A DNA stretch of 64,000 bases, taken from contig NZ_FNPW01000002.1 in NCBI RefSeq assembly GCF_900107395.1, positions 377,826 to 441,825 on the forward strand. Reading direction: 5' to 3'. Made by a program: the position numbers and the translations under genes. Under the pieces are notes generated by a model. It was not told the DNA's origin. It saw only the letters and a program-made list of their open reading frames with translations, and did not search any database. Shown piece after piece: positions 21,523 to 29,784 of this stretch. The DNA is from Pseudomonas sp. NFIX28 (GTDB lineage Bacteria; Pseudomonadota; Gammaproteobacteria; Pseudomonadales; Pseudomonadaceae). How positions within the stretch are numbered: the stretch's first letter is position 1; every line of letters starts with the position of its first letter.

Positions 21523-23016
21523 TCAACTCGCGGCCGGCCGGTATTGCAGGGCCTCGGCCAGGTGTTCGCGGCTGATCTGCTCGACCTGCTCGAGGTCCGC
21601 CAGGGTACGGGCAACCTTGAGCAGGCGGTGGGCGGCGCGCAGGGACAGGGTCAGGCGTTCACAGGCGCTTTCCAGCCAGTGCTCGTCGGTTGTGGATAAC
21701 TGGCAATGCCGGCGCAGGCCCGGGAGATCGAGAAAAGCATTGGCGCAGCCCTGGCGCCGTTGTTGCCGCTCCCGGGCGCGGGCCACCAGGGCCGCGGCTT
21801 GCGCGGTGTTATCCCCAGCCTGGGGCTTGGGGTTGAGGGCCGTGCTTTCCCGGGCCACCGTCAGGTGCAGGTCGATGCGGTCGAGCAGCGGCCCGGAGAG
21901 CTTGTTGCGATAGCGCTGGATCTGCTCCGGGGTGCAGCGGCAGCGGCCACTGGGCTCGCCAAGATATCCACAGGGGCAGGGGTTCATCGCCGCCACCAGT
22001 TGGAAGCGCGCCGGAAAATGCACCCGGTCGCGGGCGCGGGCGATAACGATCTGCCCGGACTCCAGCGGCTCGCGCAGCACTTCCAGCACTTTGCGGTCGA
22101 ACTCCGGCAACTCGTCGAGGAACAGCACGCCGTGGTGGGCCAGGGTGATTTCCCCGGGTTGCGGTTTCGAACCGCCGCCGACCAGCGCCGGCCCCGACGC
22201 CGAGTGGTGAGGCTGGCGGAAGGGCCGTTGTGGCCAATGGCTCAGGGGAACATGGCTGGTGACCGACTGGATGGCTGCCACTTCCAGGGCTTCCTGCTCT
22301 TCCAGCGGTGGCAGCAGGCCGGGCAGGCGGCTGGCCAGCAAGGTCTTGCCGGTGCCCGGCGGGCCGCTGAACAGCAGGTTGTGCGCCCCGGCCGCGGCCA
22401 CTAGCAGCGCACGCTTGGCGGCCAGTTGGCCCTGCACTTCATTCAGGTCGGGGTAGGGGCGGTCCTGGTAGAGCAGGCCGTCCGACGCATAAGGCGCGAT
22501 CGGCGTATGGCCGTTGAAGTGGGCCACGGCTTCCAGCAAATGGTCGACCGCGATCACTTTCAGCCCTGAGGCCAGGCAGGCTTCCTCGGCATTCGCGCGC
22601 GGCACCATCAGCGTGCGCCCGGCCTGGCGCGCCGCCAGGGCCGCCGGCAAGACCCCGCGCACCGGGCGGACCGCACCGGAAAGCGCCAGCTCGCCCAGGC
22701 ACTCGACGTCCTCCAGGGCCAGGGTCGGCACCTGCACGCTGGCGGCGAGAATGCCCAGGGCGATGGCCAGGTCGAAGCGCCCACCGTCCTTGGGCAGGTC
22801 GGCCGGGGCGAGATTGAGGGTGATGCGCCGGGCCGGAAAGTCGAAGCCGGCATTGAGAATGGCGCTGCGCACCCGGTCCTTGCTTTCCTTGACCGCCGCT
22901 TCGGGCAGGCCCACCAGGGTCAGGGCCGGCAGGCCGTTGGCCAGATGGACTTCGACCGACACCGCCGGCGCTTGCACGCCGGTCTGGGCACGGCTGTGGA
23001 CAATGGCCAGAGACAT
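21523..23016 (-). CDS. comM: ComM/YifB-type AAA+ ATPase (Mg chelatase-like)
   Basis: This 497-residue protein has an N-terminal ChlI-type subdomain (SLAIVHSRAQTGVQAPAVSVEVHLANGLP), a Walker A FSGPPGTGKTLLASRLPGLLPP, a Walker B LFLDELPEF and a C-terminal ChlI domain with the short zinc-like motif CPCGYLG plus CRCTPEQ. ComM is a hexameric helicase that promotes branch migration during natural transformation. The start at 23016 leaves out a weak upstream extension. In P. aeruginosa its neighbour is ubiK; here a seven-gene operon intervenes. Confidence 0.93.
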   Translation of the reverse strand: MSLAIVHSRAQTGVQAPAVSVEVHLANGLPALTLVGLPEAAVKESKDRVRSAILNAGFDFPARRITLNLAPADLPKDGGRFDLAIALGILAASVQVPTLALEDVECLGELALSGAVRPVRGVLPAALAARQAGRTLMVPRANAEEACLASGLKVIAVDHLLEAVAHFNGHTPIAPYASDGLLYQDRPYPDLNEVQGQLAAKRALLVAAAGAHNLLFSGPPGTGKTLLASRLPGLLPPLEEQEALEVAAIQSVTSHVPLSHWPQRPFRQPHHSASGPALVGGGSKPQPGEITLAHHGVLFLDELPEFDRKVLEVLREPLESGQIVIARARDRVHFPARFQLVAAMNPCPCGYLGEPSGRCRCTPEQIQRYRNKLSGPLLDRIDLHLTVARESTALNPKPQAGDNTAQAAALVARARERQQRRQGCANAFLDLPGLRRHCQLSTTDEHWLESACERLTLSLRAAHRLLKVARTLADLEQVEQISREHLAEALQYRPAAS

Positions 23017-23124
23017 GACTCGTTCCTTGAGGCTGGGAAACCGCGTCCTGCGGTTGTGCAAGCCTAGCCCCGGCCGGAGCTTCGTCGCGCCGGAAAATCG
23101 GCTCAGGATGTTGCAGCGGGCGGC

Positions 23125-23874
23125 TCAGCCGCGCCAGTCGTGGGACCAGCCCGGCTGTGCGATGCGCGCTTCGTACAGGGCGATATCCGACTGATTGTCG
23201 ACTTCCACCCAGCCGCCGCGAATGGCCACGGCGGTGATGGCGGTGCCGGCCTGGAGCAGGGCGCGCAGCAGGCTGGTCATGTCCAGCTGGTCGATCTGCT
23301 GCTGGCTCATGCCGGACAGCAGTGTCCGGACCTGGCTCCAGCCGTCGGGGGTGAATTTCAGCAGGCCCATGTATTGGCCTTCGATTTCCTCGCGGCTGGC
23401 GGTTTTTTCACCGATGCCCAGCAACTGGCCGGCCTGTTGGCGGAAGCTTTCGGCATCGCTGAGGGGGTCATCGAAGCGCGCCGACCACAGGTCCCACCAA
23501 TCGAGGTCGTAGGTGATGCTCAGGGGCGCCTGGGAGGCCATCAGGTCGCGGACGATGTCCGGGCGGTAGACGATGTCGCCGTAGCACACCAGGGTCGGCC
23601 CGCTGGACAGCAGGGCGTCGGCGCGCATCAGGCTGCGCACCATGTTGCTGCTGGCCCAATGCGGGTTGTACAGCCGGCTCTGGCCGTAGCCTTCGAGGGC
23701 TTCGCTGCAATAACCGCTGACCAGGTGCACCTCGTCGACTCCGGCGTTGTCCAGGGCTTGCAGCTGCCATTCGAGCAGCGGCTTGCCAGCCAGGCGGGCC
23801 AGGGGCTTGGGTTGCGTGGCGGTCAGGTGTTTCAGGCGGGAGCCGCGGCCGGCGGCGAGAATTACGGCTTTCAT
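23125..23874 (-). CDS. MobA/GlmU-like nucleotidyltransferase, candidate CTP:phosphoglutamine cytidylyltransferase (Cj1416-like)
   Basis: This 249-residue protein carries the N-terminal nucleotidyltransferase signature LAAGRGSRLKHLT followed by the conserved KPLARLAGKPLLEW lysine segment, and VCYGDIVY as the metal-binding aspartate region. It is the last gene of the seven-gene operon, 6 bases after the amidotransferase-like gene. C. jejuni Cj1416 makes CDP-L-glutamine from CTP and L-glutamine phosphate and belongs to this family. The gene order kinase, hydrolase, cytidylyltransferase is the same as Cj1418-1417-1416. A sugar-phosphate or choline-phosphate transferase is the alternative if the neighbours are ignored. 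Confidence 0.75.
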   Translation of the reverse strand: MKAVILAAGRGSRLKHLTATQPKPLARLAGKPLLEWQLQALDNAGVDEVHLVSGYCSEALEGYGQSRLYNPHWASSNMVRSLMRADALLSSGPTLVCYGDIVYRPDIVRDLMASQAPLSITYDLDWWDLWSARFDDPLSDAESFRQQAGQLLGIGEKTASREEIEGQYMGLLKFTPDGWSQVRTLLSGMSQQQIDQLDMTSLLRALLQAGTAITAVAIRGGWVEVDNQSDIALYEARIAQPGWSHDWRG

Positions 23875-23880
23875 GTCAGG

Positions 23881-24513
23881 TCACTCAAAGAGCCATTGGC
23901 ACAGTTGTCGATCGGCTTCGTGCAGGGTTGTTTCGCGCTCGGGGTGCCACATGATGCCGGCCACCTTGAGGTGGGTATGCACCAGGGCCTCGCAGTTCCC
24001 GGCAGCGTCCACGGCCCAGGGGCGCAGGGCGGCGGGCAGCGGCTCGAGCAACTGTTTGCCGTGGAAGGAATTGACCGAGCGCGAAGCGGCCTGGCCCTGT
24101 AGCCAGGGCAGCCCGTCGGCGGCCAGCAAGTTGATGCGGTGGCGCTGCGCGACGTGCACGCTGCGGTCGGCCTCGGTCAGCTGGCCGCCGAAAAAGCTGT
24201 GGATCAGTTGCAGCCCGCGGCACACCCCGAGCACTGGCAGCCGCTCGGCCAGGCAGTGGGCAAGCAGCGCCTGTTCGCTCCGGTCGCGCAACGGGTCGTC
24301 GCCGAGGTCGTCGCCACCACTGAAAATCAGCCCTTGCACGCCCTGGTCCCGGGCATAGGCCACGGTGTCGTCGCCCAGGTTGGGCAACAGCAGCCATTGG
24401 TGGCCGCAGCCCAGCTCGCTGAAAAAGCGGTACCAGTCCCTGGCCAGGCCATCGCGCGGTTCATGGTAGGCCTGCGGGTTGCAGGTTCGCAGGGTGATAC
24501 CGAGGCGTTTCAT
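23881..24513 (-). CDS. class I glutamine amidotransferase-like hydrolase (peptidase C26), candidate Cj1417-like gamma-glutamyl-CDP-amidate hydrolase
   Basis: This 210-residue protein has the catalytic triad of the gamma-glutamyl hydrolase/PuuD group: C98 in LGVCRGLQ, then H190 and E192 in MWHPERE. SGGDDLGDDPLRDR is the family's glycine-rich substrate loop. In C. jejuni, Cj1417 of this family cleaves CDP-L-glutamine to cytidine diphosphoramidate and glutamate. It overlaps the glutamine-kinase-like gene by 4 bases. Without the context it would be called gamma-glutamyl-GABA hydrolase. Confidence 0.78.
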   Translation of the reverse strand: MKRLGITLRTCNPQAYHEPRDGLARDWYRFFSELGCGHQWLLLPNLGDDTVAYARDQGVQGLIFSGGDDLGDDPLRDRSEQALLAHCLAERLPVLGVCRGLQLIHSFFGGQLTEADRSVHVAQRHRINLLAADGLPWLQGQAASRSVNSFHGKQLLEPLPAALRPWAVDAAGNCEALVHTHLKVAGIMWHPERETTLHEADRQLCQWLFE

Positions 24514-26909
24514 GGCTGCACCGGGTTCAGGGTCTTGTCGCGGCAGTTCAGGGCGATCCGTGGGCTGCGCAGGATCCGGTTGAACAGCTGCTCGCCGCAG
24601 CCGATGGCCGCCGGGATGCCGAACTCGGCGCAGCGGATGGCCATGTGCGAATTGGCCCCGCCGTATTGGGTGACGAGCCCGACGATGCCCCGGGTAAAGA
24701 CCCAGTCGTAGCCGGGGTCGGCGTTTTCGATGCAGACGATCTTGCCTTTGAGCGGTGCCGAGGCCGGGGTGTCCTGGCGCAAGTGCATGCCGTTGGCTTC
24801 GATGTTCTGCCGGGTGATGAAGTTGGGCAGGCTGCGATGCAGCGGCGCGACGAACACATCGTCGACCGTGCTGATCAGATGCCCGAGTTTCAGCGAGATG
24901 CCCTGTTCATAGCTGCGCCGTGCCTGGCTGGCCGACTCCAGCAGGACGCGGTCGGTGTCGTCCATCAGCGGTGCGGTGAGGCTGTCGAGCAAGGGGTGGA
25001 TATCCAGAAAGGACAGGTCTTCCCGGGCCAGGCCGACGTCGGCGCCCCAGTTCACCAACAGTTGCAGGGCATCGGACAGGTCGCGGGTGAACACCAGCTT
25101 GGCGTATTCCCGGGCCTGGATGGCCTGGCTGGCATAGTCCAGCAGGTGTTCGGCGGTCAGCGGCCAATTTTGCTCGTCGATCAGCCGTTGCAGGGCCTGG
25201 CGTTCTTCGGTTTGCAATTGGAATGTCGCCTGCGGGCCTTCGCCGAGTGCCAGCTCGACGGTCGTTGCGGCGAACAGGTCGTGGCGTTCGTCATATCGCA
25301 ACGAGGTGATGTCGTAGGTGCCGGGGCGCAGATGGCCGAACTTGGCGACGAAGGCCGGCAGGGCCCGGGCGTCGGCGCAGACCTGGGCGTATTCGCCGAT
25401 CAGTTCGGTAGTGACGGTGCGGATCGACTGCTTCCAGGCCAGCAGGCGCTCATCGCTCAGGGCGCCTCGGCGACAGGCCGAGCGCAGCAGGGCTTCGGCG
25501 ATGAAGGCATGCCGGGCGAGTATGGCGAACGGCAGCGTGCCTTCCTCGCGGCAGTCGTGCAGCAGGCGCTGGATGCTATCGAGACCTGCCGGCAGGGCAT
25601 CGAGACGGCGGCTTTGCTGGCGGCTTTCGTGAGTGCGCACCTGATCGAGCAAGGGCGGCAGCGCTCCGGCGCCAGCGCCGGTCAGCGCCCGCAGCGTCAA
25701 CTGGTCGAGGGCCGCGCGATAGGCCTGTTGTTCGGCGGTGCTGAGGCAGTCGCCGTACCGCTCGGCGAAGTCGGCGTCGAAGGTGAAGTCCAGGCAGGTC
25801 TGGACGATGTCGAATTCGATCTTGTCGTGCCATTGCGGGTGGGCTTGCAGGCGCTGCAGCCAGGCGTCGACCAATTTACTGCACAGCCCCGGCTCCAGGC
25901 CCGCCGGCAGGAGGGAGTTGAAGCTGCAGCGCACGTCGATGTACGGGTGATGGCCCAGCATCACCATCAGCGCCTGGTGCCGCGGATGGTGATAACCCAT
26001 CAGGGCGCGCGCTTCGCGCCAGGTCGAATCCGTCACCAGGCGGCGATACAGCGATGCCGCCAGCGGGCGCGGGGTGGTGCCGATGATTTCCGCCGGGTTC
26101 CAGTCGGGCATGACCCCCAGCAAGGTGCTGTCGCCATACAGGCCGGCCTGGGGGGCCAGGCGTTTGCCGAGGAAGCCCTGGAGGTGCTCGAGCTGGCGCG
26201 CCACCCGCCGTTCGGTGACCGGGTGCCAGGTGTTGCACAAGGTGATGCGCCGCACTTGCAGCACATACACCTGCTGGTGGCGGTCGACGGCGAATTCGAT
26301 GTCCAGCGGCACCTTGCCGCACAGCGTTTCCAGTTCCCTGCAGGCATCGATCACTGCCTGCAGGCGCGGGGAGCGCAGTTGGCTGCTGGCGGTGTCGCGG
26401 TAGACCAGCACGGTTTTCTGGATGCCCTGGCCGCCGGTGATGGTGTCGGTCAGCCCGCTCTCATCGTCGTAATTCACCACGTAGTAAGGGGCGCCGTGCT
26501 CCAGGTCGTGGGTCATGACCACGCCGCTCATCTGGATCGAGGTCAGCATCGGCTGGATCAGGATCTGGTTGTCCTCGCAGCGGTGTTCGGCAAAGGACGC
26601 GATCACCTGCTCGATGGCTGCGCTCAAGGCCTGTGGCGCGGTGGCGCTGACATTCAGGCAGCTGGTGAACAGGCCGGCCATCGAACTGTTGAAGCCGTCC
26701 TCGTTTTGCGCGCTGCTGCGCACGATCACGCAACCGCCATGCTCCATCCGGGCAATGTTCTGCAGCACGTCCGCGGGGGCCTCTTGCCACTGGCGCGCGG
26801 TGAAGAAATACAGCGGCAGGATCCGCGAGCGGGTGACCCGTGGTTGCAGGCGCTCCAGGGTTTCAGACTTGGTCCCGAAACGAACGGTGTTGTCGGCAGC
26901 CTGGTTCAT
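24510..26909 (-). CDS. PEP synthase-like protein, candidate L-glutamine kinase (Cj1418-like)
   Basis: This 799-residue protein has an N-terminal ATP-grasp/PPDK_N segment (VRSSAQNED at 63-71, then SMAGLFTS) and a C-terminal phosphohistidine domain with H755 in YGGANSHMAIRCAEFGIP. The middle region does not resemble the PEP/pyruvate TIM barrel of true PEP synthase. That architecture, including the swivelling histidine, is shared by C. jejuni Cj1418, which phosphorylates the amide nitrogen of L-glutamine while ATP goes to AMP and phosphate. It overlaps both neighbours by 4 bases. The activity is inferred from family and context, not shown. Confidence 0.78.
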   Translation of the reverse strand: MNQAADNTVRFGTKSETLERLQPRVTRSRILPLYFFTARQWQEAPADVLQNIARMEHGGCVIVRSSAQNEDGFNSSMAGLFTSCLNVSATAPQALSAAIEQVIASFAEHRCEDNQILIQPMLTSIQMSGVVMTHDLEHGAPYYVVNYDDESGLTDTITGGQGIQKTVLVYRDTASSQLRSPRLQAVIDACRELETLCGKVPLDIEFAVDRHQQVYVLQVRRITLCNTWHPVTERRVARQLEHLQGFLGKRLAPQAGLYGDSTLLGVMPDWNPAEIIGTTPRPLAASLYRRLVTDSTWREARALMGYHHPRHQALMVMLGHHPYIDVRCSFNSLLPAGLEPGLCSKLVDAWLQRLQAHPQWHDKIEFDIVQTCLDFTFDADFAERYGDCLSTAEQQAYRAALDQLTLRALTGAGAGALPPLLDQVRTHESRQQSRRLDALPAGLDSIQRLLHDCREEGTLPFAILARHAFIAEALLRSACRRGALSDERLLAWKQSIRTVTTELIGEYAQVCADARALPAFVAKFGHLRPGTYDITSLRYDERHDLFAATTVELALGEGPQATFQLQTEERQALQRLIDEQNWPLTAEHLLDYASQAIQAREYAKLVFTRDLSDALQLLVNWGADVGLAREDLSFLDIHPLLDSLTAPLMDDTDRVLLESASQARRSYEQGISLKLGHLISTVDDVFVAPLHRSLPNFITRQNIEANGMHLRQDTPASAPLKGKIVCIENADPGYDWVFTRGIVGLVTQYGGANSHMAIRCAEFGIPAAIGCGEQLFNRILRSPRIALNCRDKTLNPVQP

Positions 26910-27634
26910 GACGCGTCCTCATGCTTGTCCACCGTCAGCAACGCCAGGTGTTTGAGCAGCGGGTGGATGATGAAGTAGGGCGGCTTCTCGGCCTCGGCCG
27001 GCAGGGGCCGCAGGGCTCGCTCGCCTTCGCGTCGCCAGTGGCGCAAGACTTCCACCAGCAGGTCGGCGCGGATCGCATTGTCGTACAGGTAGTCGACGTC
27101 CATGCCGGGCGGCGGCAGCGGATAGGCCTTGCGCGCCAGCACCGGGCCGGTGTCGATCTGCTCATCGAGCAGCAGGGCGCTGGCGGCGCATTCGCGCTGT
27201 TCGATGATCTGGTAATACAAAGTGGTGCTGCCGCGATAATCCGGCAGCCAGCCGGAGTGGATATGCAGCACCGGATAGCGGCTCAGCAGGGCCGCGGGCA
27301 CCAGTTGCCCGCCGTAGCCAGAGTAGACCAGCAGGTCTGGGGCCTGGCGGGCAATGCATGCCAGCAGTTGCGGGTCGTCGAGCGCCTGGGTCGGGCATAC
27401 CTCGTGGGGCCAGCCCAGCGCGGCCAGGCAGGTCTCGACGTCCTGGCTCAGGTCTGGGCAGAAAAGCCCGGCAAGCGGTTGTACCCGCAGCTCACGGGTA
27501 GTTTGCAAGGCGCCGCCGCCCTGGCCGTAGACAATCACGGCTTCAGGCTCGATACCCGCCGCCGCCAAGCCTTGCAGATAGGCGACCGAACGCGCGGTGC
27601 GGGCGCAGAGGACCAACAGGCGCGCGCGACTCAT
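26906..27634 (-). CDS. formyltransferase-family protein
   Basis: This 242-residue protein has the catalytic core of folate-dependent formyltransferases: HIHSGWLPDYRGS (124-136) and a terminal LLLDEQIDTGPVL with D161. The canonical first asparagine of the N-x-H motif is a histidine here (H124-I-H126), so true formyl transfer is not certain. Methionyl-tRNA and sugar N-formyltransferases share the fold. There are 4-base overlaps on both sides. It may formylate or hydrolyse an amine on the operon's product; this is inference. Confidence 0.7.
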   Translation of the reverse strand: MSRARLLVLCARTARSVAYLQGLAAAGIEPEAVIVYGQGGGALQTTRELRVQPLAGLFCPDLSQDVETCLAALGWPHEVCPTQALDDPQLLACIARQAPDLLVYSGYGGQLVPAALLSRYPVLHIHSGWLPDYRGSTTLYYQIIEQRECAASALLLDEQIDTGPVLARKAYPLPPPGMDVDYLYDNAIRADLLVEVLRHWRREGERALRPLPAEAEKPPYFIIHPLLKHLALLTVDKHEDAS

Positions 27635-28197
27635 AAGCCGGCCTGCCGGGCGACGCTGGCCAGTACCTGTTGCTCCTGGCCCAGCAGCCAGGCCAGGTAG
27701 GCGCCCTGGTCCGGTTCCAGGCGCGCCTGTTGCGACACCAGCGTGTCGGTCAGTTTCAGCAGGCCGCTGAGGTAATAGGCCGCGCCGCTCGCTTGCCAGC
27801 CGTGGAGCATGCATTCGGCCAGCAACAGGTAAGGCTGTAGGCAGCTGTAGCTGCTCTGCGGCAGCGGACGGTGCGGCGCTGCGGCTTCGTAGCCGGCATA
27901 CAGGCGTTTGCTCACTTCGAACTTCTTCAGCAGGCGCGGCAGCCAGTAAGCGGCCAGCGGGCCGGATACGCCGGCACGCATTTCCAGGCACAGGTGGCTT
28001 AGCAGCGTTTTGCTGTCTTCGGCATGCGCCGCGCCGTGCGGGTGCAGCGCGGGCAAGGCCGGCGCCGGCAGGGCGGCACATGCGGCCAGGCGCGAGGCGC
28101 GCCAGGCGTCGACGAAGGCGTGGCCCTGGAAACTGCTGTAGCGGTAGGTTTGCGGGGTTTCCAGCAGGTCCCCGTCGCTGTAGGCGTAGTTCAGCAT
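27631..28197 (-). CDS. unrecognised protein of the phosphoramidate-type operon
   Basis: This 188-residue protein has no domain that I can name. It lacks a signal peptide or membrane segment and is rich in leucine, alanine, tyrosine and tryptophan. Its C-terminal two thirds look like amphipathic helices (LAAYWLPRLLKKFEVSKRLYAGYEAA, LLLAECMLHGWQ, AAYYLSGLLKLTDTLVSQQARLE), which suggests an all-helical repeat fold. It overlaps the kinase-like gene by 7 bases and the formyltransferase-like gene by 4, so it is part of the operon and probably of its function. Confidence 0.75.
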   Translation of the reverse strand: MLNYAYSDGDLLETPQTYRYSSFQGHAFVDAWRASRLAACAALPAPALPALHPHGAAHAEDSKTLLSHLCLEMRAGVSGPLAAYWLPRLLKKFEVSKRLYAGYEAAAPHRPLPQSSYSCLQPYLLLAECMLHGWQASGAAYYLSGLLKLTDTLVSQQARLEPDQGAYLAWLLGQEQQVLASVARQAGL

Positions 28198-28718
28198 GGC
28201 GACGGATACCCGCAGAGCTGGCGAATGCGTTCTACGTAACCGGCGATATCTTCGGGCTGGTGACGGTTGTGCAGCACCAGGTCCGGACGTTGCGGCGGCG
28301 GGTATTCAATGTCCACGCCCACCACGTTGCTCTGTTCGCCTCGCAGGGCGGACTGGTAGAGGCCCTTGTTGTCACGGCTGACCAGGGTGCTCAGCGGCAC
28401 ATCGACGAACACTTCGCGGTAGCTGGAGAACCGCTGCCGGTTGTCGTCGCTGATGTCCTGGAACATCGACAGGATGCAGCAGACCACATCGATGCCCTGG
28501 CCATCGAGCCAGCCGCACAGGGCCTGGATCCGCTCGGCATTGACCCGGCGTCCGGCGACGCTATAGGCGTCCGCCTGCTGGTCATGGCGAAACAGCGCGC
28601 GAATCTCGTCGCCGTCGACGAATACCGTCTGCGGCCGTTGCGCTTTCAAGCTGGCGTACAAGGCCTGGCCAATGGTGGTTTTACCTGCGCCCGACATGCC
28701 GACCAGCCAGATCACCAT
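28191..28718 (-). CDS. adenylylsulfate kinase-like protein, candidate CDP-amidate kinase (Cj1415-like)
   Basis: This 175-residue P-loop kinase of the CysC family has Walker A GMSGAGKTT (7-15), the VFVDGDEIR segment that binds the nucleotide 3'-hydroxyl side in APS kinases, and VFVDVPLSTLVSRDNKGLY. No sulfate-assimilation genes lie nearby. C. jejuni Cj1415 is an APS-kinase homologue that phosphorylates the 3'-hydroxyl of cytidine diphosphoramidate, which fits the surrounding genes. An ordinary APS kinase is the alternative. It lies 4 bases after the first gene of the operon. Confidence 0.78.
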   Translation of the reverse strand: MVIWLVGMSGAGKTTIGQALYASLKAQRPQTVFVDGDEIRALFRHDQQADAYSVAGRRVNAERIQALCGWLDGQGIDVVCCILSMFQDISDDNRQRFSSYREVFVDVPLSTLVSRDNKGLYQSALRGEQSNVVGVDIEYPPPQRPDLVLHNRHQPEDIAGYVERIRQLCGYPSPC

Positions 28719-28722
28719 GCTT

Positions 28723-29784
28723 TCACCCCTGCTTGAGTATGTTTTCGATGTTGCGCAGCGCCAATACCGCCAGCTCCGCCGAGAAACCGTAGCTGGGAGC
28801 GAAGTAATGGCGGCGCAGACGCTGGCGGACCGCAGCCTGTTGTTGCCAGAGGGCCTCGTCCCCCAGCAGGTCAGCCAATTGCCAGCGCGCCTCGGGGTCG
28901 AGGTTGACGATGTCGTTGCGCAACAGCACGTCGGGCGACTCTTCGCCGGTCAGCGCATCCCGCTCGGCGCCCGGCACGTTCAACAGCAGCAGGTTTTTGT
29001 CCAGGTACAGGGCGCCGAACGCGGTTCCGCCGTAGTCCGAAACCACATAGTCGGCGCATCGGAACAGGCTCAGGTTGTCATAGACCCGGGTGATCACCGC
29101 CGTGAACGGGTATTGCCCGAGAATGCCCAGCGCCTCGGGATCGGCCGCGGCCGACAGCGGGTGGGTTTTCACGATGACGTTGTAGCGATCGCACAACCCG
29201 GCCATGGCGTCGGCGAAGCGGCTGATCGACGACAGTTCCAGCCAGGTCGGCAGCCACAGAACGGTCTTTTTCGCCGGGTCCAGGGCCAGGTCCGCCGGGC
29301 GCGTGCCTTGCAGCGAGGCTTCGCGGAAGTAGGCGTCGTAGCGCGGGTAGCCCATCTGGAAGGTCACCGCATCGCAGCATTCGCGCAAGCGCTCGGCCTG
29401 CCACGGGCCGAAGCACAGGATCAGGTCGTAGTGCTGGTTCCAGCTGGAAAAGTTGTGTTTGTACTTGCCCAGCGCATACATGAAACGCACCTGGCGATGG
29501 CCCAGCGCCTTGATCATCGGCTGCGAGCCGTGGTCGTACATGCTGTGGTTGGACACCACCACGTCATAGCGGTGGCTGGCCTTGATCACATCCAGGCTGC
29601 CGTGACAGCTGTAGCCCAGGGCGCCAATCAGTTCGCGGCTTTGCGCACGCTCTTCACGGGAGCCATGCAGGACCACATCGAAAGCGTCGGCCCCCAGCAG
29701 GCTCCAGACCGCCTGATAGTGATTGAGCATCTCGGCGGTATGAACGAAGAAAGCCAAGCGACTGAAGGGTTTTGGCGCGGTCAT
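28723..29784 (-). CDS. CDP-glycerol glycerophosphotransferase-like transferase
   Basis: This 353-residue protein has the C-terminal block of the TagF/TagB-like family: KTHPLS near residue 230, then CADYVVSDYGGTAFGALYLDKNLLLLN. Members of this GT-B-like family use CDP-linked donors to transfer phosphoglycerol or other phospho-groups to polysaccharides. As first gene of the operon it is the best candidate to transfer the phosphoramidate-type group from a CDP carrier to an acceptor. No membrane segment is seen. The ATG at 29784 is preferred to a GTG at 29802. Confidence 0.72.
   Translation of the reverse strand: MTAPKPFSRLAFFVHTAEMLNHYQAVWSLLGADAFDVVLHGSREERAQSRELIGALGYSCHGSLDVIKASHRYDVVVSNHSMYDHGSQPMIKALGHRQVRFMYALGKYKHNFSSWNQHYDLILCFGPWQAERLRECCDAVTFQMGYPRYDAYFREASLQGTRPADLALDPAKKTVLWLPTWLELSSISRFADAMAGLCDRYNVIVKTHPLSAAADPEALGILGQYPFTAVITRVYDNLSLFRCADYVVSDYGGTAFGALYLDKNLLLLNVPGAERDALTGEESPDVLLRNDIVNLDPEARWQLADLLGDEALWQQQAAVRQRLRRHYFAPSYGFSAELAVLALRNIENILKQG

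What the first reader, a model, noticed from the sequence alone, without database searches (positions are those of the whole stretch)
23125..29784. A complete cytidine diphosphoramidate-type pathway in a Pseudomonas operon
Seven minus-strand genes are coupled by 4-7 base overlaps or 4-6 base gaps. Four match, by family and active-site motifs, the enzymes of phosphoramidate capsule modification in Campylobacter jejuni: PEP-synthase-like L-glutamine kinase (H755), amidotransferase-like hydrolase (C98-H190-E192), nucleotidyltransferase, and APS-kinase-like kinase. The order kinase, hydrolase, cytidylyltransferase equals Cj1418-1417-1416. I know of no described phosphoramidate system in the fluorescent pseudomonads. 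The expected product is a P-N bonded group on a surface glycan or small molecule.
Basis: partly seen in the sequence, partly recalled or inferred. Interest (0 to 1): 0.95.

Follow-up and report, generated by a model that had tools for sequence, protein, structure and literature searches.

The report
Phosphoramidate pathway for Pseudomonas surface glycans
A seven-gene Pseudomonas operon encodes relatives of all four enzymes with which Campylobacter builds an activated phosphorus-nitrogen group, and it is predicted to attach that rare group to a surface sugar, likely the one decorating the flagellum.

Summary
In detail: seven minus-strand genes (A-G, 23125-29784), coupled by -7 to +6 bases. The four-enzyme reading holds too. 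Against C. jejuni GP013's phosphoramidate genes, kinase E is homologous over its length (34%), G and B are the best matches in the window's genome, and key residues of E and F are conserved. F falls below its family's curated cut-off. The kinase is in 35 of 398 Pseudomonas genomes; all 35 have E-F-G contiguous.

New here: (1) in 6 loci the pathway lies between flgL and fliC, in the flagellin glycosylation island; 5 hold all of A-G. (2) The window's genome has a second locus (PhyH, GT61, FdtA, aminotransferase, QdtF-like) on another contig; homologues adjoin A-G in two relatives. Its GT61 gene is in 6 of 398 genomes, including all five with the >=67%-identical kinase. (3) C and D, fused in one relative, never accompany the Campylobacter-type methyltransferase; D has His where formyltransferases have catalytic Asn.

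Best reading: CDP-phosphoramidate is made and moved by A onto a 3-amino-3,6-dideoxyhexose glycan, likely on flagellin, with a cap unlike Campylobacter's O-methyl. Activity, acceptor and cap are untested.

The parts
28723..29784 (-). A: predicted phosphoramidate transferase (PF04464, CDP-glycerol glycerophosphotransferase-like), 353 aa
   Evidence: PF04464 35.7 bits, cut-off 22.1; a PF04464 protein passes the cut-off in the one representative tested of types II, III, IV and VI and, marginally (22.5), in Vibrio alfacsensis; glycerol-3-P cytidylyltransferase TIGR01518 not over cut-off in the genome. Donor and acceptor inferred.
28191..28718 (-). B: CDP-amidate-kinase-like (APS kinase superfamily), 175 aa
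   Evidence: NF004041/PRK05541 147.5 bits (cut-off 127), as for the C. jejuni enzyme (290.6), and below the apsK TIGR00455 cut-off; best match in own genome to the C. jejuni kinase, 113.9 against 51.8 and 47.4 bits
27631..28197 (-). C: all-helical protein without a Pfam or NCBIfam match, partner of D, 188 aa
   Evidence: no family at E <= 0.01; 30 proteins found, the window's own cluster included; AF2 pLDDT 91.9; no significant Foldseek match; fused to D in G905, L150:9537-10874
26906..27634 (-). D: formyltransferase-fold protein with His in place of the catalytic Asn, 242 aa
24510..26909 (-). E: predicted L-glutamine kinase (PEP-synthase-like), phosphohistidine H755, 799 aa
   Evidence: NF004508 945.4 bits, cut-off 501; 34% identical to the C. 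jejuni enzyme over residues 9-792, E 3.5e-129; H755 invariant
23881..24513 (-). F: predicted gamma-glutamyl-CDP-amidate hydrolase, C98-H190-E192, 210 aa
   Evidence: best NCBIfam hit NF045546 97.7 bits, E 9e-28, cut-off 250 not reached; triad invariant
23125..23874 (-). G: predicted CTP:phosphoglutamine cytidylyltransferase, 249 aa
   Evidence: best match in own genome to the C. jejuni cytidylyltransferase, 135.7 bits against 37.1 for the next; alignment

Best explanation
The operon encodes relatives of the four Campylobacter enzymes that make activated phosphoramidate (E, F, G, B), together with a predicted transferase (A) and a linked C-D pair, and is predicted to put a phosphoramidate group on a 3-amino-3,6-dideoxyhexose-containing surface glycan, likely that of flagellin. 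Inferred steps: E phosphorylates the amide nitrogen of glutamine; G joins the product to CMP from CTP; F removes glutamate to leave CDP-phosphoramidate; B phosphorylates the ribose 3' hydroxyl; A transfers the phosphoramidate to the glycan. In this genome the sugar is predicted to come from a second locus (FdtA ketoisomerase, aminotransferase, QdtF-like N-formyltransferase, GT61) on contig C30. C-D is predicted to act where Campylobacter and other relatives use an O-methyltransferase, giving an uncapped or differently capped phosphoramidate.
For: Shown: homology of E, F, G and B to the C. jejuni set, conserved key residues of E and F, and best-match placement of G and B. E-F-G contiguous in 35 of 35 Pseudomonas genomes. 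In 6 of 6 type III/IV loci (L068-L073) the pathway lies between flgK-flgL and a giant glycosyltransferase followed by fliC-fliD-fliS; all 6 also carry FdtA, aminotransferase and acetyltransferase matches, and 5 hold all of A-G. Two relatives carry partner genes directly beside A-G: L062 with PhyH, GT61, FdtA, aminotransferase and QdtF-like; L063 with PhyH, GT61 and FdtA only. The partner GT61 gene is found in 6 of 398 genomes, including all 5 with a >=67%-identical kinase, though unlinked to A-G in 3 of the 5 (hypergeometric 7e-11, relatedness ignored). In the sixth genome, G357, PhyH-GT61-FdtA-aminotransferase lie among flagellin-island genes, with three called genes between them and fliC. 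The partner enzymes match solved QdtF (E 1e-84), FdtA-type (2e-41) and QdtB-type enzymes. D or a D-like protein (15 loci) and the Campylobacter-type methyltransferase (16 loci) never share a locus; 4 of 35 have neither.
Against: No activity or product has been seen. F misses its family's curated cut-off (97.7 against 250 bits), and none of 398 Pseudomonadota genomes has a match over it. In the window's own genome neither half lies in the flagellin island: A-G are at comM/glnK, the partner locus is about 6.5 kb past flgM-flgN, and the flgL-fliC island holds a separate set with a NeuB-family gene. In G092 (L119) and the type II loci (L062, L063, L122) no match to my flagellar sets was seen beside the partner genes. 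G357 has the partner genes without a kinase match. The QdtF-like gene is matched in only 3 of the 6 GT61-bearing genomes (G000, G381, G089). Against a simple C-D-for-methyl swap: 4 of 5 type III loci carry another methyltransferase-domain gene (MT20, about 400 aa), C is certain in only 10 of the 15 D loci, and relatedness was not corrected for. The role of C is unknown; D lacks the catalytic Asn. The C. jejuni transferase genes were not recognised in the stretch fetched, so A was not compared with them.
Confidence: 0.6

Rival explanations
1. The same pathway, but the phosphoramidate goes onto lipopolysaccharide (core or O-antigen) or another surface polymer, not flagellin.
For: Phosphoramidate without O-methyl has been reported chemically in the LPS of Xanthomonas campestris and of Shewanella MR-4 (passages in PMC3907429; PMC8042644; PMC3210612). 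FdtA/QdtA, QdtB and QdtF enzymes serve O-antigens elsewhere (recalled; entry titles name Salmonella O60 and Providencia). Type I and II loci are not beside flagellar structural genes.
Against: 6 of 6 type III/IV loci lie between flgL and fliC, and in G357 the partner genes lie close to fliC. The genes flanking A-G in the window that I named (comM, ubiK, glnK, amtB, names recalled) are not LPS genes.
Confidence: 0.25
2. The operon makes a secreted small-molecule phosphoramidate, such as an antimetabolite.
For: In Agrobacterium vitis (L107) E-F-G adjoin a CDP-alcohol phosphatidyltransferase-family gene and a LysE-family gene, with a tRNA-ligase-like gene nearby, a layout that suggests a small molecule.
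Against: None of the seven window genes matches an exporter, carrier protein or ligase; A is of a glycan-acting family; the co-occurring partner genes make nucleotide sugars.
Confidence: 0.07
3. Ordinary paralogues (PEP synthase, APS kinase, GABA-type hydrolase, sugar nucleotidyltransferase) that share an operon by chance and make no P-N bond.
For: General Pfam families only; F under its curated cut-off.
Against: 35 of 35 contiguity across diverged lineages, homology to the C. jejuni kinase over 784 residues, and a separate PEP synthase and two APS-kinase-like genes elsewhere in the genome.
Confidence: 0.03

Closest known systems
C. jejuni cj1415-cj1418 O-methyl phosphoramidate (MeOPN) capsule pathway
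   Same: Four homologous enzymes; order kinase-hydrolase-cytidylyltransferase; conserved key residues of kinase and hydrolase
   Different: 29-42% identity; A and C-D added, Campylobacter-type methyltransferase not found; not in a capsule locus; in relatives inside flagellin glycosylation islands
Pseudomonas flagellin glycosylation islands (flgL-fliC), e.g. the modified-viosamine glycan of P. syringae and the 209-Da phosphate-containing modification of PAO1 (passages in PMC3958885)
   Same: Position in six relatives; deoxyamino-sugar genes; large glycosyltransferase beside fliC
   Different: Adds a CDP-phosphoramidate supply. No title or abstract start in the listings seen describes one for such an island (some searches listed only part of their hits). 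A link to the PAO1 modification was not tested.
dTDP-Qui3NFo / dTDP-Fuc3NFo pathways (FdtA/QdtA, QdtB, QdtF/FdtF)
   Same: The partner locus matches each solved enzyme type, with the ankyrin tail of QdtF
   Different: Tied by co-occurrence to the phosphoramidate operon; QdtF-like gene matched in 3 of 6 genomes only
CDP-glycerol:poly(glycerophosphate) glycerophosphotransferases (PF04464)
   Same: A passes the Pfam cut-off
   Different: Glycerol-3-phosphate cytidylyltransferase (TIGR01518) not over cut-off in the genome; expected donor is CDP-phosphoramidate or its 3'-phosphate

Membership tests
L-glutamine kinase (NF004508/PRK05849, the family that holds the C. jejuni kinase) | Full-length match over the curated cut-off (501 bits) | tested here: met
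   945.4 bits, residues 3-797; C. jejuni kinase 1173.1
L-glutamine kinase (NF004508/PRK05849, the family that holds the C. jejuni kinase) | Phosphohistidine in the mobile domain | tested here: met
   H755 in GGANSHMAIR, invariant in 6 of 6 aligned, C. jejuni included
L-glutamine kinase (NF004508/PRK05849, the family that holds the C. jejuni kinase) | Phosphorylates glutamine | not testable with these tools
   needs an assay
gamma-glutamyl-CDP-amidate hydrolase (NF045546) | Score of at least 250 bits | tested here: not met
   97.7 bits, although the best NCBIfam hit; C. jejuni 330.7; 0 of 398 Pseudomonadota genomes reach it
gamma-glutamyl-CDP-amidate hydrolase (NF045546) | Cys-His-Glu triad | tested here: met
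   C98, H190, E192 invariant in 7 of 7
CTP:phosphoglutamine cytidylyltransferase (Cj1416 type) | Best match in the genome to the C. jejuni enzyme | tested here: met
   135.7 bits, next 37.1
CDP-amidate kinase (Cj1415 type, PRK05541 subfamily) | Over the PRK05541 cut-off and distinct from the genome's other APS-kinase-like genes | tested here: met
   147.5 against 127; apsK TIGR00455 106.3 under 138.7; the two other APS-kinase-like genes of the genome score 51.8 and 47.4 against the C. jejuni enzyme, B 113.9
MeOPN (O-methyl phosphoramidate) system | Cj1419/1420-type methyltransferase in the locus | tested here: not met
   no tblastn match in window 15001-36000 to seeds that include one C. jejuni enzyme
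MeOPN (O-methyl phosphoramidate) system | Cj1421/1422-type transferase | not tested
   these genes were not recognised in the C. jejuni stretch fetched
Formyltransferase (PF00551) for D | Fold and Pfam cut-off | tested here: met
Formyltransferase (PF00551) for D | Catalytic Asn-x-His...Asp | tested here: not met
   His at the Asn position in 48 of 48 aligned; His and Asp kept. That this Asn is catalytic is recalled.
CDP-glycerol glycerophosphotransferase (PF04464) for A | CDP-glycerol supply in the genome | tested here: not met
   TIGR01518 best 43.5 bits, cut-off 165.4; only this one family was searched

The most novel reading that the evidence does not exclude
Pseudomonads decorate flagellin glycans with phosphoramidate, a P-N group known so far from capsules and LPS, through a pathway split between two genomic loci. 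A formyltransferase-fold protein with a rebuilt active site (D) and its helical partner (C) put a new cap, for example N-formyl (+106.98 Da in all), on the phosphoramidate in place of the O-methyl of Campylobacter.
Probability: 0.25. Interest if true: 0.88.

Novelty: new variant of a known kind. Interest (0 to 1): 0.74.

Why it matters
A 2022 review speaks of a 'C. jejuni-specific glutamine kinase' (passage in PMC9561416). Here the kinase-hydrolase-cytidylyltransferase core is found in 35 of 398 Pseudomonas genomes and on the four plasmids whose loci I read (Vibrio, Azospirillum, Agrobacterium, a deltaproteobacterium), so P-N decoration may be a widespread surface chemistry. It gives a lead to genes for the phosphoramidate groups found chemically in Xanthomonas and Shewanella LPS, and a testable idea for unassigned phosphorus-bearing flagellin modifications such as the 209-Da one of PAO1. 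Flagellin glycans affect virulence and surface interaction in Pseudomonas (passage in PMC8036289), and capsular phosphoramidate is recognised by a Campylobacter phage (title in reference lists). The C-D pair marks what looks like an undescribed enzyme type.

Tried and rejected
Rejected: PEP synthase for E (the own PEP synthase is on contig C20; it shares only 54 residues with E). APS kinase for B. CDP-glycerol use by A (one family searched). D as the N-formylase of the 3-amino sugar in this genome: the QdtF-like enzyme of the C30 locus keeps Asn-x-His and fits that role. The window genome's own flgL-fliC island as home of the operon: no match to A-G was recognised there.
Full report
1. Observation. 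The seven ORFs, their strand and their tight junctions are as described. I call them A (PF04464), B (APS-kinase-like), C (no family), D (formyltransferase-like), E (kinase), F (hydrolase) and G (nucleotidyltransferase), from 29784 down to 23125. The flanks are comM on one side and ubiK-glnK-amtB on the other (these names are recalled; the same flanks appear in relatives).

2. Is the core a CDP-phosphoramidate pathway? I obtained the C. jejuni GP013 locus. Its order is two methyltransferases, kinase, hydrolase, cytidylyltransferase, APS-kinase-like, followed by two genes that I take from recall to be kpsC and kpsS. Cj numbers are given by homology and order; PMC3907429 (passages) names cj1415-cj1418 as the four genes required for MeOPN biosynthesis. 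Identities to the window by blastp: E 33%, F 29%, G 34%, B 42%. NF004508 holds both kinases over its cut-off (945 and 1173 bits, cut-off 501) and PRK05541 both B proteins (147.5 and 290.6, cut-off 127), while both B proteins stay under the apsK cut-off (106.3 and 126.9, cut-off 138.7). F is a distant relative of the curated hydrolase family (97.7 against 250; C. jejuni 330.7). In the window's own genome G and B are the clear best matches to the C. jejuni enzymes. H755 of E and C98/H190/E192 of F are invariant in the alignments. The reaction order (glutamine phosphorylation, cytidylylation, loss of glutamate, 3'-phosphorylation) is recalled from the Campylobacter work. PMC6429109 (passages) names N-phospho-glutamine as the first product and 3'-phospho-CDP-phosphoramidate as a proposed intermediate.

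3. Distribution. The kinase is in 35 of 398 Pseudomonas genomes at E <= 1e-50. I fetched all 34 other loci and, with the window, found E-F-G contiguous in 35 of 35. Types: I, A-G at comM/ubiK (3: window, L060, L061). II, A-G with partner genes beside them (2: L062, L063). III, A-G in the flagellin island with A-D on the other strand (5: L068-L071, L073). IV, flagellin island with methyltransferase (1: L072). V, c41-B-methyltransferase-E-F-G (15; 9 of them beside comM). VI, E-F-G with A-like and D-like genes (5: L064-L067, L144). VII, E-F-G without a match to A or B (4: L077, L078, L146, L147). Outside the genus, 14 plasmid records match the kinase at E <= 1e-40, 12 of them over at least 80% of it; in the 4 that I read (Vibrio, Azospirillum, a deltaproteobacterium, Agrobacterium) E-F-G are contiguous.

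4. Flagellin. For all six type III/IV loci I read both sides: flgK-flgL lie on one side and a giant glycosyltransferase, fliC, fliD and fliS on the other (Pfam checked on L068 and L120). In all six, FdtA, a DegT aminotransferase and a hexapeptide acetyltransferase accompany the pathway.

5. The partner locus. In the window's genome FdtA occurs once above the Pfam cut-off, on another contig, with PhyH, a GT61 protein, an aminotransferase and a QdtF-like formyltransferase, about 6.5 kb past flgM-flgN. Its products match solved FdtA-type, QdtB-type and QdtF enzymes. Homologues adjoin A-G in L062 (all five) and L063 (PhyH, GT61, FdtA). The GT61 gene is in 6 of 398 genomes: the five with a >=67%-identical kinase, and G357. 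The chance of such overlap is 7e-11 if genomes were independent, which they are not. In three of the five the two loci are unlinked. The QdtF-like gene was matched in 3 of the 6 (G000, G381, G089). In G357, which has no kinase match, the PhyH-GT61-FdtA-aminotransferase set lies among homologues of the window genome's flagellin-island genes, with three called genes between it and fliC. The giant flagellar glycosyltransferase of type III carries a GT61 domain too, weakly similar to the partner protein. I infer one pathway split over two places.

6. A, C and D. PF04464 proteins accompany E-F-G in types I-IV and VI and in Vibrio, and glycerol-3-phosphate cytidylyltransferase is not over cut-off in the genome, so A is my candidate transferase; that is inference. 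D has the formyltransferase fold but His in place of the Asn in 48 of 48 aligned. C is all-helical without a significant match. C and D are fused in G905. C and D are both matched in 10 loci (types I-III); a D-like gene is in the 5 type VI loci (4, L064). None of these 15 carries the Campylobacter-type methyltransferase, which is in 16 loci (types IV and V); 4 loci have neither (Fisher 1.9e-6 on 15/16/0/4, not corrected for descent). Against a simple swap, 4 of 5 type III loci carry another methyltransferase-domain gene (MT20). On the kinase tree type III falls among methyltransferase-bearing lineages, and the methyltransferase-bearing Smac51 plasmid kinase groups with types I/II with weak support (83/70). 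This suggests swaps, and that C-D acts at the capping step; what it adds is unknown.

7. Limits. No product is known. The window's own locus is not in the flagellin island, and LPS remains a real alternative, since phosphoramidate is reported in Xanthomonas and Shewanella LPS. Types were assigned by tblastn at 1e-6 with at least 35% of the query covered, within about 20 kb. Gene calls came from a simple codon-based script.

Noticed in passing
window 21523-23061 (comM) and L135-L140, L143, L145, L148: Two different phosphoramidate clusters use the same neighbourhood: type I lies between ubiK and comM (3 of 3 loci), type V on the other side of comM in 9 of 15 loci. Possibly a recurrent insertion site.
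   Followed up: partly
L107:11908-16997 (Agrobacterium vitis plasmid): E-F-G followed by a LysE-family gene and a CDP-alcohol phosphatidyltransferase-family gene, with tRNA-ligase-like, TauD and asparaginase genes nearby: looks like a small-molecule phosphoramidate cluster.
   Followed up: no
L150:9537-10874: C and D fused into one 445-aa ORF in a 2.0 Mb gammaproteobacterial genome, in an E-F-G-B-(C-D) cluster without a detected A.
   Followed up: partly
L064-L067, L144: Type VI loci: E-F-G with an A-like protein and a D-like protein of about 455 aa; in L064 also a 60KD_IMP-family and a sulfatase-family protein; surface polymer unknown.
   Followed up: no
L074-L076, L135-L143, L145, L148, L149: A protein of about 390-416 aa (c41) precedes B-methyltransferase-E-F-G in 15 of 15 type V loci; no Pfam match in the two tested; candidate O-methyl-phosphoramidate transferase.
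   Followed up: no
L104:8437-15739 (Vibrio alfacsensis plasmid): E-F-G lie next to cysN-cysD, which are on the opposite strand.
   Followed up: no
phage record MT837632.1, 682-2994: A 9.5 kb contig filed as a bacteriophage from human faeces encodes a homologue of the kinase over 97% of its length (33%); it may be a misfiled bacterial contig.
   Followed up: no
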